From NCBI GenBank assembly GCA_030432255.1, contig JAUIHS010000008.1, positions 62,001 to 126,000 on the forward strand: 64,000 nt of DNA. Reading direction: 5' to 3'. Made by a program: the position numbers and the translations under genes. The notes below the pieces were generated by a model that saw only the letters and a list, made by a program, of their open reading frames with translations, was not told the origin of the DNA and searched no databases. Every line of letters begins with the position of its first letter. The stretch's first letter is position 1. This document shows, piece after piece, positions 1-40,591 of this stretch. Source of the DNA: Phycisphaerae bacterium. Lineage in GTDB: Bacteria > Planctomycetota > Phycisphaerae > Phycisphaerales > UBA1924.

Positions 1-2738
1 ATGGAGTTGATGAGTGTCAGTATGCCGTCCGCGGCCACGACCACGATGCCTCCATCGGCGCCGTTGGTGGTGTTGTTGGAAGCGGTGATGCGCTCGCCTT
101 CAAGCTCGCCCCCGGAGATTCCCGCGGCGGCGGCGGTGGGTGCTTCGTTTCCGGAGAAGAAGAGCATGGCGACCTTGACATCGCCATCGAGACCGACGAG
201 CAGGGCACCGCCCGCCATGGCGGCTTCGTTTCCGAAGAAGGCGGTTTCCGCGATGTCGAGGTCGAGTGTATCGACGTGGAGGGCGCCGCCGCTCAGGCCG
301 ATGTTCTGTTCAAAGGAGCATTCCCGGATCTCGGAGTCAGCGGATTCACCCGTCAGACGGATCGCACCGCCGAGACCGGTGGTGTTGTTGTTGCTGAGTG
401 TGCTCTGTTCGATGAAGAGGAGACTGGTGAGTGCGTTGATCGCGCCACCGTCGCCGATGGCCTGGTTGTCCTTGAGGACGCAGTCGCTGATCTGCAAGGT
501 GCAGCCTTCGGCATCAATGGCGCCTCCGGTGGTGCCGGCGGAGTTGCGCGAGAGGGAGGCGCCGTTGATGGAGACGCCAGCGTCCCGAGCGTAGATGGCG
601 CCTCCGGCGTTGGTGGCGACGCAGTCATCGATCGAGGTGTTGATGAGGCCGATGTTGCCGCTGATCGCCGCCACGGCGCCGCCGTCTGGGGCGGTGGCCG
701 GTTGGATGATGCAGTCTTCGAGCAGAAGTGTGGAACCGTTGGCGGCGCGGGCGACGGCACCGCGTCCGATGACCCGGTTGTTGCCGCGAAGCGTGAACCC
801 CTTGATGGTGACAACGGGTTCGCCCTCGTCACAGTTGATGGCTCGTCCGAGTCCATCGGCGTTGATGATGGTTGTGGCGGGTCCATCGGTGGCGATGATG
901 GCGACGGGGTCGCCCACGGTCTCGAGTTGCTCGGGGTATGAGCCGGGTCCGGCGAGGATCACGGATTCGCAGGGGCCGGCGGAGTTGATGAGTGACTGGA
1001 GTGTCGGTGCGACTCCGGCGGTGGCGACGAGATGCATGGTCTCGGTGGCGCCCATGTTGACGCGCGCGGTCGTGTCGCCGTCGATGTCTGTGATGCGCGG
1101 GCATCCGAAGACATCCTCGGTGAGGTCGACGGGGACGAGAGCGTTGTCACCGGCGTCGGTGCAGGGTGAGCCGGGCATGAGTCGGACATCGAAGAGCGTC
1201 TGTCCGAGTCCGCTTCCGAGATCGCTGACGAAAAGGGGGTCGGCGTCGATGTTGCCGACGCCTTCCCAGCCGCCTTCAACGCACGAGCGCTCGACGATGG
1301 GGTCATCGAAGTGATCGATCTGTGAGCGGTCGTCGAAGCCTTCATCGGTGCGATTGCCCCAGACGATGGAGTTGCGGATGTACGAGATGTCGGCGGGCTC
1401 GATGCCGGCGGCGACGCCGGTTGTGTAGTTCGCGATGATGGAGCAGTTGACGGCTTCGAGGTAGTCTTCGAAGACGCAGTTGATGCCGCCTCCCTGGTTG
1501 CCGACGATGATGCAGCCATGCACGTACGTGACGTCCGCGGCGTCGATCCCGATGCCGTCATTGCCTTGGATGATGCAGTTGCGCACGGTCAGCGCGTCGC
1601 CGGGATCGCTGCCGAACGTGTTAATGCCTTCGTCGCCGCAGAACTCGATGCGACACCTCTCGATGGTGGCACTGCTGGAGACTGAGATGCCATCATTCCC
1701 GCAGTTGCGGATCACGCAGTCGGTGATGGTCGAGTTGAGACCGACATCGATCCCGGTGAATGAGCAGCCGGAGACCTCGCAGTTGCTGATCGTGGCGGTT
1801 CCGCCGATGTCGATGGCGCCTCCGTTGTTGATGAAAGTCGAGTTCGTGATGGTGCCGGAGTTGGCCCTGACTCCGTCGCTGCCGTTGTCGATGAACGTGC
1901 AATCGGTCACCTCGACACTGTTCGTGAAGAGTCCGATGCCATCGAGGCGGTTGCCGTTGAACTCGCATCCGGTGAAGCTGAATCCGCCGTCGACACCGTA
2001 GCCGTCGTTGAAGGAGACGATGCAGTCCGTGAAGTCGGCGTCATCCGGGGCGTTGCGAACGCCTTCTCCGTCATTCAAGGTGATCAGGCAGCCGTCGAAG
2101 CCGGCCGTCGTGCCGGTGGATGTGAAGAAGATCCCATCGCTGCCGTTGCTCGCCACGGAGCCACCCGAGATGGTGAGGCTGCTGTCCTCACGGATGTACA
2201 TGCCGAAGTTGGTGTTGTTGTCCACATCGGTGTCGTTGAGGACGACCTGCGACAGTCCTTCGTCCGAAATACCGTTGGTGCTGTTCAGAAACACGCGGCA
2301 GTCGGTGAGGCTCAGGTCCGCATCATCGATGTGGATGCCGTTGCTCTGCGAGAAGCTGACGACGCAGTCGGTCATGCTGAGCCGGGCGGTCGCGACTTCG
2401 ATCGTCGCCAGCGTGGAACTGCCGCCCTCGAAGTCGATGCCTTCGACGATGAGCAGTTCGGCTCCGGTCCCGGTCACCGTCAGGGCGGATCCCGTGTTGG
2501 CGGCATCGATCACGACCTTGCCGACATCCGCCATCAGCGTGATATTGAGGTTCGTGACGACCACCTGCTCGGTATAGGTGTCCGCCTGGATGATGACGAC
2601 ATCCCCGTCCGACGACGCATCGACGGCCGCCTGGATGGTGGCGAACTGCGACGGCACGAGTCGGTCGACCGCGGATGCAGATGCGCAGAACAGAACCAGC
2701 CCGGCACACACCGGCACAGCACGAAAGAATTGCGGCAT
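1..2738 (-). CDS. Secreted right-handed parallel beta-helix protein, 5' part (runs off left edge)
   Basis: The reading frame is open from the ATG at 2738 to the window edge, so at least 912 residues are present and the C-terminus is missing. GGAGGAGA lies just upstream of the start. The N-terminus (MPQFFRAVPVCAGLVLFCASASA) is a clear signal peptide, followed at once by a 'VPSQFATIQAAVDASSDGDVV' type opening, which is typical of pectate-lyase-like beta-helix proteins. The rest is repeated short turns such as ISNCEVSGCSFTGID and ITDCVIRNCGNDGIS. The later part (from about residue 620) is rich in GGAI/GGGA turns. I infer an exported surface or extracellular protein. No catalytic residues could be identified. 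Its relatives in this window end in dockerin tails, so one probably lies beyond the edge. Confidence 0.88.
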   Translation of the reverse strand, partial: MPQFFRAVPVCAGLVLFCASASAVDRLVPSQFATIQAAVDASSDGDVVIIQADTYTEQVVVTNLNITLMADVGKVVIDAANTGSALTVTGTGAELLIVEGIDFEGGSSTLATIEVATARLSMTDCVVSFSQSNGIHIDDADLSLTDCRVFLNSTNGISDEGLSQVVLNDTDVDNNTNFGMYIREDSSLTISGGSVASNGSDGIFFTSTGTTAGFDGCLITLNDGEGVRNAPDDADFTDCIVSFNDGYGVDGGFSFTGCEFNGNRLDGIGLFTNSVEVTDCTFIDNGSDGVRANSGTITNSTFINNGGAIDIGGTATISNCEVSGCSFTGIDVGLNSTITDCVIRNCGNDGISVSSSATIERCRIEFCGDEGINTFGSDPGDALTVRNCIIQGNDGIGIDAADVTYVHGCIIVGNQGGGINCVFEDYLEAVNCSIIANYTTGVAAGIEPADISYIRNSIVWGNRTDEGFDDRSQIDHFDDPIVERSCVEGGWEGVGNIDADPLFVSDLGSGLGQTLFDVRLMPGSPCTDAGDNALVPVDLTEDVFGCPRITDIDGDTTARVNMGATETMHLVATAGVAPTLQSLINSAGPCESVILAGPGSYPEQLETVGDPVAIIATDGPATTIINADGLGRAINCDEGEPVVTIKGFTLRGNNRVIGRGAVARAANGSTLLLEDCIIQPATAPDGGAVAAISGNIGLINTSIDDCVATNAGGAIYARDAGVSINGASLSRNSAGTTGGAIDAEGCTLQISDCVLKDNQAIGDGGAINALTSLLFIEQSTLSNNNTTGLGGAIRLTGESADSEIRECSFEQNIGLSGGALHVDTLDLDIAETAFFGNEAAMAGGALLVGLDGDVKVAMLFFSGNEAPTAAAAGISGGELEGERITASNNTTNGADGGIVVVAADGILTLINS

Positions 2739-14077: not shown

Positions 14078-17000
14078 ATGCGCTTTCCGTCCGCATTGAT
14101 CGTCGCACCTCTGTGCATCGTCGCGGCTGCCCAGGCCGACACCATCCTTGTTCCCGGCGATCATCCCACGATCCAGGCCGCGATCGACAACGCATTGTCT
14201 GACGACGTCATCGAGGTCTCGGCCGGTACCTACCGCGAGAACGTCGTGGTGCCGAGTGATCTGCGCATCGAGATTCGCGGCGTGGATGGCGCATCGTCGA
14301 CCATCATCGATGGTCTGGGAGTCGCGAGCGCCGTGACGGTGTCGGATAGCGCCGACGTTGATCTCATCAGTTTCACGATCACCGGCGGGGCTGCTGAGTC
14401 CGGCGGCGGCATTCACAGCATGAATGCCACGCTCCGCGTCAGCGACGCCATCATCATCGCCAACCAGGCGGGATCCGGCGGCGGCGCTCACGTCGCTGGC
14501 GGCTCTGCCCTTTTCAACGGTGTGATCTTTGACGGCAACATCGCCGAGACAGACGGCGGTGGATTGTCTTCGGTGGACGCGACCGTGAGTGTCGTCGACT
14601 GCTCAACGACCAACAGTCGTGCCGCGAGTGGTGCGGGCATGGCCTTCGCCGGTGGCGTCGTGGAAGTCGTGGCCACCAGCATTTCGGACAACATCGCGAC
14701 TGACAACGGCGGCGGCATCTGGTTCACCGGCGCCATCGATCCGGAGATTGACCGCTGCACGATCATCGGCAATTTCTGTTCCGCCAACGGCGCCGGTGTC
14801 GCGCACGATGGCATCGGGCAACTGGTGACGATCAGTTCGATCATCGCGAACAACGCCTCGACCGGTGGTGTGGGCGGCGGCATGTGGTCGACGGGCGCCG
14901 CCTCGATTCGCTGCCTCAACGGCACCCTCTGGGGCAACAGCGCCCCCAGCATCGGCGGTATCCAGTCCGAGCAGACGACGTTCATCGGTAACAGCGTGCT
15001 GTGGAACAACACGGACGCCACTGGGCCGACGGCCGCGGCACAGATCGGTGGCCCGGCCAACGTGGTCTACTCCGACATCCAGGGCGGCTTCGCGGGCACC
15101 AACAACATCAACCAGGACCCGGTGTTCAACGCGCCATCGGACAACGACTTCACGTTCCCGAACACCTCGCCCCTCTTCGATGCGGGTGACACGGCGCTCG
15201 TGGAGCAGGCCGGTGCGCTCGATGTGGCGGGCAACCCGCGTATCGCGGACGCGGAAGTGGACATCGGCGCGGTTGAGTTCCGCCGCACCGAGTACTTCGT
15301 GCCCGCGGACTTCGCGACCATCGGTGAAGCGATCGACTTCGCCAATGACGGTGAAACCATCTCCGTCGCCTTCGGTCAGTACGAGGAGTCACTGGACTTC
15401 ATGGGCAAGGCCATCACGCTGCGAGGGATGAGCCTTCGCGGCAAGACGCTGCTGCCCACCATCGCATCCCCGACTTCGGCACGGACCATCACATGCATCA
15501 ACCCCAACGGCCAGGCCCTGCTCGCCGACCTGATGATCACGGGTCCGAACGGGACCGGGGGCGGTGGCGTTCACGCCGAGGGGAACGTCCTGATCGTGGA
15601 CTGTCTCATCTTCGGATGCGAGTCTTCGGGTGATGGCGGTGGCCTGCTGGCCTCCGGCAACGTCAGGCTGGAGCGGACGACACTCGCGCAGAACCTCTCC
15701 GATGCGCGCGGTGGTGGCGCCTTCATCGAGGCCAGTGCCGATCCGGATGAGACGGTGCTGTTCCGCGACTGCGCCATCATCTCCAACTCGGCCGAGAATG
15801 GCGGGGGCGTGGCCTGCGCCGGCAACGCTCGGTTCATCGCGACGAACATCGTGCAGAACTCAACCCTCGGAACCGGTTCCGGTGGTGGCGTGCTCAACAC
15901 CGATGGTGATATCGAGATGATCAACTGTCGCCTGCTCGAGAATGATGCCGGCTTCGGTGGTGGTATCTTCGCCGCTGTCGGCAGTCACTCGACGCTCATC
16001 GGCAATTACATCGCGCAGAACACCGCCATCGACGGCGCGGGGGCGAATATTGATGTGAATACGTTCGTGCGGATGACGAACTGCTCCATCGTCGACAACA
16101 ACGCATCGGGAATCGGCGGTGGTCTCTATGCGACCGTTCAGAACTCCGACGCCCTCGTGGTCAATTCGATCCTCTGGGACAACGTGGGTGACGAGGTCTT
16201 CGCAGACTATGAGGGGGGTGGCGGTCGCGGCGGCGGTGACCTCGTCATCAACAACTCCTGCATCCGTTTCGGCTGGAGTGGTACCGGTACCGGCAACATC
16301 ACCGATGACCCGCTCTTCGAGGACCCGGAGGGGGATCTCTACTTCCTCACCGCCACGTCTCCGTGCATCGACATCGCGAACATGGCGGCGCTCATCACGA
16401 CGCGCGATGTTGACGACCTGGATCAGGATGGTCTCTTCCGCGAGTATTACCCGATTGATGTGAACGGCCTGCCGCGAGTGCGCAACGGTCGTGCGGACCT
16501 CGGCGCGTTGGAAGCGTTCGTGGGACCGAGTGACAGCCTGTGGACGGGTCTGGGCACGGCGGTCTGGTCAGATCCGATGTCGTGGTTCCCCGATGCGCCC
16601 GGCCCCAACAACAACGTGCTCTTCCGAGGCGACGCCAACCTGACACTGGATGCTCCGGCCACGCACACGCAGGTGCATTTCGACAATGGCGTCTTCAATC
16701 TCGATCCGAACGGCAACACGCTCGGCTTCACTGCGGATCTACTCGGTCCGGCGATCAGTGTCGGAGTGTGGTCCGACACCACCGCGGAACTGATCCTCTC
16801 GGATGGCGATCTCATGACCCTCGGCGCGCTGCCCATGCAGATCGGCGCCATGGGCGTCCTCTCCGGGAATGCGTCCATCCAGGCGGATGTTGATGTCGCC
16901 GGTGAGATTCGCCCGGGTGGTGACGGCTTCGGCAGCCACTTCATCTTCGGCGATCTCAGCATGACCGCGACTGATCCCCTCGGTGTGACCGAAGCGGGAC

Positions 17001-32420: not shown

Positions 32421-35171
<2,751 letters not shown>

Positions 35172-35231
35172 GCGTCGCTCCTTGTCCTGTTGGGTTCAAA
35201 GGAAGCATACGGACCGGAGTGTCATCAGTCG

Positions 35232-35261
35232 AATCAATTGAATTTAGTATATCGATTGATT
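35232..35261. promoter_or_regulatory. AT-rich inverted repeat between acnA and the antitoxin
   Basis: AATCAAT (35232-35238) and ATTGATT (35255-35261) form a 7-bp dyad around an AT-rich centre containing TAGTATAT. In a GC-rich genome this stands out. A Phd-type antitoxin usually represses its own promoter through such a dyad, so this is the candidate operator. It could also act on acnA. Confidence 0.5.
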
Positions 35262-35313
35262 GTGTTGATGAACGCTCGCGTGGGTCGTCAGTCTTGACCA
35301 GGTGATCATCGTC

Positions 35314-35568
35314 ATGCAGACTCGTGGTGTGGAGAAGATCGACGCTGATAAGGTCAGAAGGCAACTCCCGCGGCTACTGGATCGGGTTGCCGACGGGGAG
35401 ACGATTGTGATCACGATTGATGGTAAGCCAGTCGCACGCCTGGTTGGACTCACGGGTGACCAGCCGGCTCGGGCCGGCGGCCACTGGAGGGGGTTGGTCC
35501 GTATTGACCCGGAGTTCAATGGCCCGCTACCAGAGGCAGAGGACCGGGCGTTTCGAGGGCTGTCATGA
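35314..35568 (+). CDS. Phd/YefM-type antitoxin, no toxin next to it
   Basis: 84 residues. 'VEKIDADKVRRQLPRLLDRVADGETIVITIDGKPVARLVGL' is the Phd/YefM N-terminal DNA-binding fold. The C-terminal 'FNGPLPEAEDRAFRGLS' resembles the toxin-binding tail of antitoxins paired with VapC-type PIN toxins. AGGTGA precedes ATG 35314; a GTG at 35302 is an alternative. The position normally held by the toxin gene is occupied by a secreted SUMF1-dockerin gene that overlaps its stop by four bases. No PIN, RelE or Doc gene was seen on either strand nearby. Confidence 0.88.
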   Translation: MQTRGVEKIDADKVRRQLPRLLDRVADGETIVITIDGKPVARLVGLTGDQPARAGGHWRGLVRIDPEFNGPLPEAEDRAFRGLS

Positions 35569-36710
35569 ACCGACTGGTGGGGCGAGCGAATTGGCTTTGG
35601 ATTCTGATTGGTTTGACGGTTCCTGCCGCCGCGGACTGTCCACCCGGAATCGATCCGGTGATCGATGGTGAATTCGACTGGGTCATCATCGGCGCGGCCG
35701 GGAACCCACCCTATGACGGCCCGACCTTCAACCTGATGCCACCCAATCATACGGGGTCGGTATCCCGTGAGTATCGGATCATGCGAACAGAGATCTCCGC
35801 GGCCCAGTGGCTGGAGTTTGCGAATGCATTTGGTCCTCTCGGAGATCCCTTCCGCATCGGGCGTGATGCACGGGAGATTGAACCGGTCATCGGAACCCAG
35901 TACGTCTTCCAGTACGCTCCGGGTGAAGAGATGCATCTCGCGGCGGTCTCCAACATCCAATGGCGAAATGCAGCGCGGTACTGCAACTGGCTGCACAACG
36001 GGAAGGACGTCTCCTTGGAGGCGCTTGAGACCGGGGCTTATGACACAACGACCTTTGGCGACAGCGAGTGCGGTGATGCGGGACTACCGTGTTTCACGGA
36101 CGACCCAACACATCTACCGGGGGCCAGATACTGGATTCCGACACTCGATGAGTGGATGAAGGCGGTTCACTACGATCCAGAGACCGGTTGGAGATTGTAT
36201 CCCGATGGTGGCGATGAGCCCCTTGTCTCTGGTTCCGCACTTGATCCACAGGCCGAGACCAACACAGAGTATGACGGACCAGATGAAGCGTATTCGTACC
36301 GGATTGGCCGCTACCCCCATGTTCAGACGCCATGGGGGCTACTTGATGCATCCGGAGGCGTGTCTGAGTGGCTGGAGAACATTCAGCCCTATTCCGGCAG
36401 TCGCCCATTCAGAAGGATGAAGGCGGGGTCCAGCCGAGGGCAGCTCTTGGGCTTGGTCTTGGACCACGCCAATCGCTTCCAATCTGATCGCGCTGATCTC
36501 GTCACTGGCGTAACTGGGCTCCGACTGGCATCCCGGGCAACGCTCGATGTGTTTGCGGATCTCACTGGTGACGGGGTTGTGGACTTTCAGGATCTCAATT
36601 GTGTGTTGTCGGAGTGGGGAACAGGTGTCGCCGATCTATCCGGAGACGGACAGACGGACTTCGTTGAACTCACGCTCGTGATCGAGCAGTGGGGGTGCGA
36701 AAGCGAGTGA
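35565..36710 (+). CDS. Secreted SUMF1 (formylglycine-generating-enzyme-like) protein with dockerin tail
   Basis: 381 residues. The signal peptide ends near residue 23 ('WILIGLTVPAAA'). The SUMF1/FGE-sulfatase fold is indicated by 'YRIMRTEISAAQWLEFANAFG', 'NIQWRNAARYCNWL', 'ARYWIPTLDEWMKAVHY' and 'GLLDASGGVSEWLEN'. The cysteines of true formylglycine-generating enzymes were not identified, so it may be a binding or non-catalytic variant. The last 50 residues form a dockerin pair ('DLTGDGVVDFQDLNCVLSEWG' and '...TLVIEQWGC'). GC content is lower than in the neighbours. The start overlaps the antitoxin stop (ATGA). Confidence 0.85.
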   Translation: MNRLVGRANWLWILIGLTVPAAADCPPGIDPVIDGEFDWVIIGAAGNPPYDGPTFNLMPPNHTGSVSREYRIMRTEISAAQWLEFANAFGPLGDPFRIGRDAREIEPVIGTQYVFQYAPGEEMHLAAVSNIQWRNAARYCNWLHNGKDVSLEALETGAYDTTTFGDSECGDAGLPCFTDDPTHLPGARYWIPTLDEWMKAVHYDPETGWRLYPDGGDEPLVSGSALDPQAETNTEYDGPDEAYSYRIGRYPHVQTPWGLLDASGGVSEWLENIQPYSGSRPFRRMKAGSSRGQLLGLVLDHANRFQSDRADLVTGVTGLRLASRATLDVFADLTGDGVVDFQDLNCVLSEWGTGVADLSGDGQTDFVELTLVIEQWGCESE

Positions 36711-39113: not shown

Positions 39114-39662
39114 CTATTGGGCGAGGGCCTTGAGTCGATCGAGCTCACACTCGACCTTCCGTCCCTCACGCATCCCCTGTTCCCTCAGCTCCTTGATGCT
39201 GCCGGGGGCCAGTTCGATCGCGATTCGGACCGGGAAAACACTGGAGTACCGCTTCAGACGCATCTCGTACTGCCGCTCGGTCTCTCCCTCGCGACGCGGC
39301 TCCTCCATCTTCATTTCGTGCCACTTGACGATGCGACCGCTGTCATCGACGAAAAGGATGTCGATATCGGTCAGGCAGTCACGCATCACGAATTCCTTGA
39401 CGTTCTTGTCCGACTTCGTGAAGGCGAAGATCATCCCCCCGTCCTCTTCGATCTCCTTGCGATCGCCCAGACCCTTGACACGCTTCTCTTCCGTCGCCGC
39501 GACTTCAAGGTCATACACCTCGTCGCAGATCTTCACACGGAAGCGACCATCTTCCGCCTCCTCGCATCCGGGAAGGGTGACGGCGGCCATCGCGGCAGCC
39601 ACGAGCAGCATGATCGCGCCGAAGCGTCTCCACGTGATGGTTGTCATCAAGCTCGCAGCCAT
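39114..39662 (-). CDS. DUF192 lipoprotein
   Basis: 182 residues. The N-terminus has a hydrophobic stretch and the lipobox LPGC (Cys33). The DUF192 domain follows with 'VYDLEVAATEEKRVKGLGDRKEI', 'GGMIFAF', 'VKEFVMRDCLTDIDILFVDDSGRIVKWHEM' and the closing 'AIELAPGSIKELREQGM'. The family function is unknown; members are often exported. The start ATG at 39662 has a strong GGAGG seven bases upstream and lies inside the end of gluQ (16-bp overlap). An internal ATG at 39647 overlapping the gluQ stop is an alternative. Confidence 0.9.
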   Translation of the reverse strand: MAASLMTTITWRRFGAIMLLVAAAMAAVTLPGCEEAEDGRFRVKICDEVYDLEVAATEEKRVKGLGDRKEIEEDGGMIFAFTKSDKNVKEFVMRDCLTDIDILFVDDSGRIVKWHEMKMEEPRREGETERQYEMRLKRYSSVFPVRIAIELAPGSIKELREQGMREGRKVECELDRLKALAQ

Positions 39663-40591
39663 GCATCGGCCTCCTGATCAAAAACGATCCGTTCCCGACT
39701 CATCTTACCGGCATCGAACCCCGCAACGATCTCCCGAAGCGTGATTTCCCGAGGCTGATCGACGATGCCGCACCAGTACGCCAGCAGTCCCAGCACCCGT
39801 GTCGCACTGACGCCCGCCTCGCGATACGCCGAAATGCGCGTGTCCCCGTGCCGCTTGGCCAGTCGTCGGCCATCCGGTCCCACGACCAGCGGCAGGTGGT
39901 GGTAGCGCGGCTCCGGCCCGAGTCCGAGGGCGCGGTACAGCAGCAGTTGACGGGCGGTGGAGTCGACCAGGTCGTCACCCCGCACAACCTCCGTGATCCC
40001 CTGCCGGGCGTCATCCACGATCACGGCCAGTTGGTACGCGGGTTGTCCCAGCTTCGTCCAGATGACGAAGTCGCCGGTCGTCCGGCCCGGCTGCTCCGTG
40101 CAGGGACCGGCGAAGGCATCGTCGAAGGTCACCGACGCATCCTCGTCCACGACAAACCGCCAGTTCGTGGCGCGGTCCTCGAAGAGCCGCGGCCCGAGTT
40201 CCGGTCGCAGGCCCGGCTCGAAGCGCAGTTCGTGTGGATCGCCCGCATGAGGCGCAACCGAGGCGGCCTCGATCTGTGAGCGCGTGAGTTCGCAGGGGTA
40301 TGCCAGGCCCGCGGCGGCGAGTTGACCCATCGCATCCACATAGGGCCCGAGGTCATCGGACTGGGTGTATGGTCCTTCGTCCCAGTCCAGTCCGAGCCAG
40401 CGGAGGATGTCGTACACCTCGGCGACGGCTTCGGGCTTGATTCGCGGCCCGACGAGATCCTCCATACGCATCACGATGCGCCAGCCCTCCCTGCGGGCCA
40501 TCACCCAGTTCACAAGAAAAGTCCGCGCGTTACCGAGGTGGAGGGCGCCGGTCGGCGACGGTGCGAGGCGGGTTGCGGGCATCTGAGGCAT
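39647..40591 (-). CDS. gluQ: tRNA glutamyl-Q(34) synthetase
   Basis: 314 residues, the length of GluQ-RS, which is GluRS without the anticodon-binding domain. It attaches glutamate to queuosine in tRNA-Asp. 'RLAPSPTGALHLGNARTFLVNW' holds the HIGH-type HLGN (18-21). 'MRMEDLVGPRIKPEA', 'QLAVIVDDARQGITEVVRGDDLVDSTARQ' and the KMSKS-like 'RRLAKRHGDTRI' follow. The zinc-cysteines of some members are not obvious. ATG 40591 fits the family start; ATG 40582 is an alternative. It is followed by an overlapping DUF192 gene. Confidence 0.95.
   Translation of the reverse strand: MPQMPATRLAPSPTGALHLGNARTFLVNWVMARREGWRIVMRMEDLVGPRIKPEAVAEVYDILRWLGLDWDEGPYTQSDDLGPYVDAMGQLAAAGLAYPCELTRSQIEAASVAPHAGDPHELRFEPGLRPELGPRLFEDRATNWRFVVDEDASVTFDDAFAGPCTEQPGRTTGDFVIWTKLGQPAYQLAVIVDDARQGITEVVRGDDLVDSTARQLLLYRALGLGPEPRYHHLPLVVGPDGRRLAKRHGDTRISAYREAGVSATRVLGLLAYWCGIVDQPREITLREIVAGFDAGKMSRERIVFDQEADAWLRA

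What the first reader, a model, noticed from the sequence alone, without database searches (positions are those of the whole stretch)
35232..36710. Antitoxin without toxin, coupled to a secreted SUMF1-dockerin gene
A Phd-type antitoxin with a VapC-partner-like tail overlaps, in the exact toxin position, an exported SUMF1 protein with dockerin. Nothing toxin-like is nearby. Possibly the toxin was replaced and the antitoxin now serves as a repressor of the secreted protein. The lower GC and an AT-rich dyad suggest a mobile origin.
Basis: partly seen in the sequence, partly recalled or inferred. Interest (0 to 1): 0.6.

Follow-up and report, generated by a model that had tools for sequence, protein, structure and literature searches.

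The report
Orphan antitoxin beside a secreted-protein gene
In one planctomycete-like genome a gene pair that normally makes an antidote and its poison has lost the poison gene, and a gene for an exported protein of a family common in these bacteria sits exactly where the poison gene used to be; this is an unusual relic, with no sign that the antidote controls the exported protein.

Summary
A Phd/YefM-type antitoxin (best start GTG 35329, stop 35568) overlaps by ATGA a secreted SUMF1-domain protein with a GC-type dockerin-like tail (35565-36710), and no toxin is near. The antitoxin belongs to a vapBC-like subfamily. All 17 closest relatives, and 28 of 30 counting more distant ones, have a PIN toxin exactly at that position. 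None pairs with SUMF1, and no cognate PIN was found in this genome. Two relatives from other families sit beside aconitase (acnA), one divergently as here. The antitoxin promoter of the relatives (TTGACY-N17-YRRACT, ending 6 nt before the start codon) is kept at 35294-35322, but its embedded ACTWAGT core is gone, and the antitoxin's first 16 residues (DNA-binding end) have diverged while its toxin-binding tail has not. This argues against, but does not exclude, a repressor role. Other toxin-less antitoxins occur in the same genome. Known kind, unusual junction.

The parts
35329..35568 (+). Phd/YefM-type antitoxin, 79 aa, most likely start GTG 35329 (longer in-frame starts GTG 35302, ATG 35314)
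   Evidence: TIGR01552 over cut-off; aligns end to end with 79-80 aa relatives from this start; relatives' promoter lies exactly 6 nt upstream of it
35565..36710 (+). exported SUMF1-domain protein with GC-type dockerin-like tail, occupying the toxin position
   Evidence: PF03781 46.8 bits; family-wide relatives at about 35-52% identity; PIN occupies this position in relatives
35565..35633 (+). probable signal peptide MNRLVGRANWLWILIGLTVPAAA
   Evidence: read from the sequence; comparable leaders in relatives; no predictor was run
35742..36380 (+). SUMF1 (FGE-sulfatase) domain
   Evidence: Pfam match residues 60-272
36555..36695 (+). GC-type dockerin-like tail with two DxxGDGxxD loops
   Evidence: weak NF041540 match; about 140 similar places in the own genome
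35565..35568 (+). ATGA stop/start overlap of antitoxin and SUMF1; GAGG at 35555-35558 is a likely ribosome site
   Evidence: sequence; the same kind of overlap joins antitoxin and PIN in relatives
35294..35322 (+). antitoxin promoter-like element TTGACC-N17-CAGACT, ending 6 nt before GTG 35329; ACTWAGT core of the relatives missing
   Evidence: same element and distance in 8 relatives; only hit in 64 kb on both strands
   Evidence: best hit in the window to a motif found upstream of 18 of 29 other family acnA genes
35253..35270 (+). inverted, weaker copy of the acnA element (holds the right arm of the dyad)
   Evidence: second best hit in the window; 0.5% of shuffles reach it
32421..35171 (-). 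aconitase (acnA), divergent neighbour; also beside the antitoxin-PIN pair in G076 and G112
   Evidence: PF00330 547 bits

Best explanation
This is the remnant of a vapBC-like type II toxin-antitoxin operon (Phd-family antitoxin, PIN-domain toxin) beside acnA. The PIN gene was lost, and a gene of the family-wide secreted SUMF1 group took its place directly behind the antitoxin. The antitoxin promoter and the ATGA junction survive, so the antitoxin promoter now probably also transcribes the SUMF1 gene, which has its own ribosome site and is exported. Autorepression by the antitoxin is probably lost or rewired. The surviving antitoxin is an orphan with an intact toxin-binding tail: most simply a relic, with a possible side role against related PIN toxins that enter the cell. 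Shown: gene order, conservation of the pair in relatives, promoter-like element kept, ACTWAGT core gone, DNA-binding end diverged. Inferred: ancestral toxin at this site, transcription of SUMF1 from this promoter, loss of repression.
For: All 17 relatives at 100 bits or more, and 28 of 30 at 75 or more, have a PIN gene directly downstream. No cognate PIN found elsewhere in the genome; the genome's two PIN genes each have their own Phd-like antitoxin. The pair lies beside acnA in G076 and G112, divergent in G112 as here. The promoter-like TTGACY-N17-YRRACT ends 6 nt before the start in 8 relatives and here; of those 8, seven keep ACTWAGT and one has the variant GCTTAGT (G624), while the window has neither. 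Segment identity: first 16 residues 21 vs 66%, tail 52 vs 51%. None of 29 SUMF1 relatives and none of 29 other family acnA loci has a Phd gene in the flanks held. The same genome holds further toxin-less Phd antitoxins, one with a broken ParE-like gene joined to a piece of a secreted-protein gene.
Against: No toxin remnant is left in the DNA, and no other genome of the same genus is held, so the loss itself is not seen. The exact ATGA junction with a complete gene is tidier than random decay usually leaves. The acnA linkage is found in only 3 of 31 loci.
Confidence: 0.75

Rival explanations
1. Functional orphan antitoxin kept for anti-addiction: toxin loss as above, but the antitoxin is now maintained because it neutralises PIN toxins brought in by plasmids or other elements, and the SUMF1 gene is an incidental passenger.
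For: Toxin-binding tail as conserved as among working pairs; orphan antitoxins proposed as anti-addiction modules (PMC7354431; PMC7192599).
Against: One genome only, so selection on the tail cannot be measured; recent toxin loss would look the same. No close relative of the antitoxin turned up on viral contigs beyond one weak match.
Confidence: 0.12
2. One reading: the antitoxin has become a repressor of the secreted SUMF1 gene.
For: The two genes form one tight unit with the antitoxin promoter-like element kept; operator and DNA-binding end have both changed, which could be joint rewiring.
Against: ACTWAGT core absent; DNA-binding end diverged while the tail, of no use for repression, is kept; the dyad matches an acnA element; pairing found in no other genome.
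Confidence: 0.08
3. Misassembly: the contig joins an antitoxin gene to an unrelated SUMF1 gene, and the PIN gene is really there.
For: Genome of 122 contigs at 94% completeness; repeated dockerin-like tails are common.
Against: The junction lies at the 5' end of SUMF1, not in the repeated tail; no other SUMF1 domain of this type was found in the genome with this query; the tail is of the host's own kind.
Confidence: 0.04
4. The SUMF1 protein is a new toxin neutralised by the antitoxin.
For: It holds the toxin position.
Against: It has a signal peptide and sorting tail, so it would not meet a cytoplasmic antitoxin; its relatives throughout the family stand without antitoxin.
Confidence: 0.01

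Closest known systems
vapBC-type toxin-antitoxin modules with Phd/YefM-family antitoxin and PIN toxin (weak sequence match to antitoxin VapB46, PDB 6jqy, E 0.0027)
   Same: Antitoxin family, size, W-G-V..F toxin-binding tail, promoter position, stop/start overlap with the following gene
   Different: PIN gene absent; operator core and DNA-binding end diverged; SUMF1 gene in the toxin position
Orphan (solitary) antitoxins, e.g. the 2253 described in Klebsiella pneumoniae (PMC7192599)
   Same: Antitoxin gene without toxin, many with another coding sequence in the toxin context
   Different: Here the following gene is a complete exported protein joined by ATGA, in a planctomycete-like genome
Secreted SUMF1-domain proteins of this bacterial family
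   Same: Signal peptide plus SUMF1 domain
   Different: Most relatives end in a VPxPG...RRR (PEP-CTERM-like) tail; this one ends in a GC-type dockerin-like domain, the tail seen widely in this genome

Membership tests
Phd/YefM antitoxin family | matches a family profile above its cut-off | tested here: met
   TIGR01552 28.8 bits, cut-off 20.8; Pfam PF02604 27.8, just under 29.8
Phd/YefM antitoxin family | conserved toxin-binding C-terminal tail of the subfamily | tested here: met
   tail 52% identical to relatives, which are 51% among themselves
vapBC toxin-antitoxin module | PIN-domain toxin gene next to the antitoxin | tested here: not met
   no PIN in the window, no cognate PIN found in the genome
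vapBC toxin-antitoxin module | operator overlapping the antitoxin promoter | tested here: inconclusive
   promoter-like element kept, ACTWAGT core of the relatives absent; a new operator cannot be excluded by sequence
Orphan antitoxin | antitoxin gene with no linked toxin while relatives have one | tested here: met
   17 of 17 closest relatives paired with PIN; none here
SUMF1/FGE-sulfatase domain family | matches PF03781 above cut-off | tested here: met
   46.8 bits, cut-off 23.3
Formylglycine-generating enzyme (functional FGE) | catalytic cysteine pair near the C-terminal end of the domain | tested here: inconclusive
   no Cys in the stretch AGSSRGQLLGLVLDHANRF and none among the conserved columns of relatives; position judged from memory of the FGE motif, no FGE was aligned
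GC-type dockerin | matches NF041540 above cut-off | tested here: not met
   16.6 bits, cut-off 29; but it resembles about 140 places in the same genome

The most novel reading that the evidence does not exclude
A secreted-protein gene captured a toxin-antitoxin operon: the antitoxin, with re-evolved DNA specificity, now controls an exported SUMF1 protein, so that proteolysis of the antitoxin under stress would switch the exported protein on.
Probability: 0.07. Interest if true: 0.6.

Novelty: new member of a known kind. Interest (0 to 1): 0.3.

Why it matters
It is a clear case of what becomes of a toxin-antitoxin operon after toxin loss: promoter and toxin-binding tail remain, while operator core and DNA-binding end drift, and an unrelated gene is left under the antitoxin promoter. 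If the repressor reading were true, it would show how an antitoxin can be recruited to control an exported protein.

Tried and rejected
Antitoxin-SUMF1 pairing elsewhere: none in the 29 SUMF1 loci or beside the relatives of the antitoxin. PIN remnant behind the antitoxin: none. Cognate PIN in trans: none, though the empty answer has no positive control in this genome. Frameshift as cause of the odd N-terminus: the other frames of 35314-35376, read by eye, show no HEAKTHLS motif. Dyad as antitoxin operator: my first alignment placed the operator at the dyad; the acnA comparison and the position check on the promoter corrected this. SUMF1 start as a leftover of the toxin's first codons: no similarity by eye beyond the ATGA. 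Mobile element: one weak viral match only, no tRNA in the window. Defence system: no PADLOC match. Solved structures for SUMF1: none at E 0.01. Sigma-70 consensus scan: nothing above its threshold, as the element is a weak consensus. No structure prediction was run.

Full report
Observation. Reading the window confirms a small ORF on the + strand whose stop overlaps, as ATGA at 35565-35568, the ATG of a 381-residue protein with an apparent signal peptide. The first matches the prevent-host-death antitoxin family (TIGR01552 over cut-off, Pfam Phd_YefM just under), the second the SUMF1 domain (PF03781, 46.8 bits) with a weak GC-type dockerin tail. About 140 places in the same genome match that tail, so it looks like a sorting domain of the host. 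Neighbours are aconitase (divergent), an LpxA-like acyltransferase, a SpoIIE-type phosphatase and a DUF192 protein. No PIN toxin is present.

The antitoxin's family. Relatives were collected from samples of relatives, phylum and class and from GTDB contigs. Every one of the 17 closest, counting each genome once, has a PIN gene directly downstream, usually with a stop/start overlap; of 30 down to 75 bits, 28 do. The two exceptions are G614, followed by a non-toxin ORF, and G606. The window is the only one with SUMF1. The cognate PIN type was not found in the whole genome, although that empty answer has no positive control; the two PIN genes found by Pfam each follow their own Phd-like antitoxin. 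Two relatives outside the family, G076 and G112, carry the antitoxin-PIN pair next to acnA; in G112 the pair is divergent from acnA exactly as here. None of 29 other family acnA loci has such a neighbour in the flanks held. The simplest history is an antitoxin-PIN pair beside acnA whose PIN gene was lost and replaced by SUMF1.

Promoter and start. In eight relatives a promoter-like element TTGACY-N17-YRRACT (TGGACT first in one) ends exactly 6 nt before the antitoxin start; in two more it lies 29 nt away. The window has TTGACC-N17-CAGACT at 35294-35322, exactly 6 nt before GTG 35329, and it is the only such hit in 64 kb on both strands. From GTG 35329 the protein aligns end to end with the relatives. 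Hence the start is most likely 35329 and the transcript close to leaderless (inference). Inside this promoter most of the relatives carry a core ACTWAGT, probably the operator; the window reads TCATCGT there.

The dyad. The arms AATCAAT and ATTGATT inside 35232-35261 belong to two oppositely directed matches to an 18-base element (consensus TGATTGATTTGATTCATG) found 40 to 90 nt upstream of 18 of 29 other family acnA genes. With the window left out of the model, its two best hits in the whole window are these two sites, 22.1 and 17.4 bits; against shuffles of the local sequence the acnA-facing copy was never reached in 2000 and the other in 0.5%. The dyad is thus most simply part of the acnA control region.

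What is kept and what is lost. Against nine relatives, the first 16 residues of the antitoxin are 21% identical where the relatives share 66% among themselves. Residues 17-39 are 64 against 67%, and the tail 52 against 51%. In YefM-type antitoxins the N-terminal domain binds palindromes overlapping the promoter (PMC7730913). So operator core and DNA-binding end have changed together, while promoter and toxin-binding tail are kept. That fits loss of autorepression after toxin loss, or a change to a new operator; sequence alone does not separate the two. It does not favour a repressor role.

The SUMF1 gene. Relatives occur in most genomes of the family, the best at 40-45% identity, mostly with a PEP-CTERM-like tail. 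None of 29 has a Phd gene beside it. Its GC is 0.585 against about 0.64, within the low tail of the window; several relatives are also below their flanks. The antitoxin has GC 0.625. No sign of a mobile element was found.

Other antitoxins of the genome. Of five further Phd-family genes over the Pfam cut-off, one is followed by PIN and one by ParE; one is followed by a broken ParE-like start joined to a fragment of a secreted repeat protein that has paralogues in the window (the ParE part rests on a weak match, 32% over 50 residues); two have no recognisable toxin. Toxin loss with retained antitoxin is thus common in this genome. Orphan antitoxins are also common elsewhere: 2253 were counted in Klebsiella, about half with another coding sequence in the toxin context (PMC7192599).

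Verdict. Most likely a toxin-antitoxin remnant with a secreted-protein gene in the toxin position. The junction is unusual, the kind is known. The repressor reading remains possible at low probability and is easy to test.

Noticed in passing
35223-35240 (-) and 35253-35270 (+): An 18-base element (TGATTGATTTGATTCATG) lies 40-90 nt upstream of acnA in 18 of 29 other family genomes; the window has it plus an inverted copy. Its regulator is unknown; only one exact match to a narrower pattern occurs in the genome.
   Followed up: partly
L085 1500-2213 (contig C121 of the own genome, about 39299-40012): A Phd antitoxin followed by a ParE-like toxin with a broken start, whose 3' part is a fragment of a secreted repeat protein with paralogues in the window at 1095-1262 (-) and 15092-15280 (+).
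   Followed up: partly
L089 and L124 (G076, G112): Antitoxin-PIN pairs of this subfamily sit next to acnA in two genomes of other families, in different orientations; with the window 3 of 31 loci, far more than chance placement would give.
   Followed up: partly
L086 1228-1740 and L087 (antitoxin ORF 1454-1813 on its - strand): Two further Phd antitoxins of the own genome with no recognisable toxin behind them.
   Followed up: partly
own genome, e.g. L053-L081: About 140 places match the GC-type dockerin-like tail, while the tail here scores below the public model's cut-off; the model may be too narrow for this lineage.
   Followed up: no
upstream of antitoxins in G193, G368, G484, G151, G112, G587, G624, G618: The promoter-like element ends 6 nt before the start codon, which suggests leaderless transcripts for this vapBC subfamily.
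   Followed up: partly
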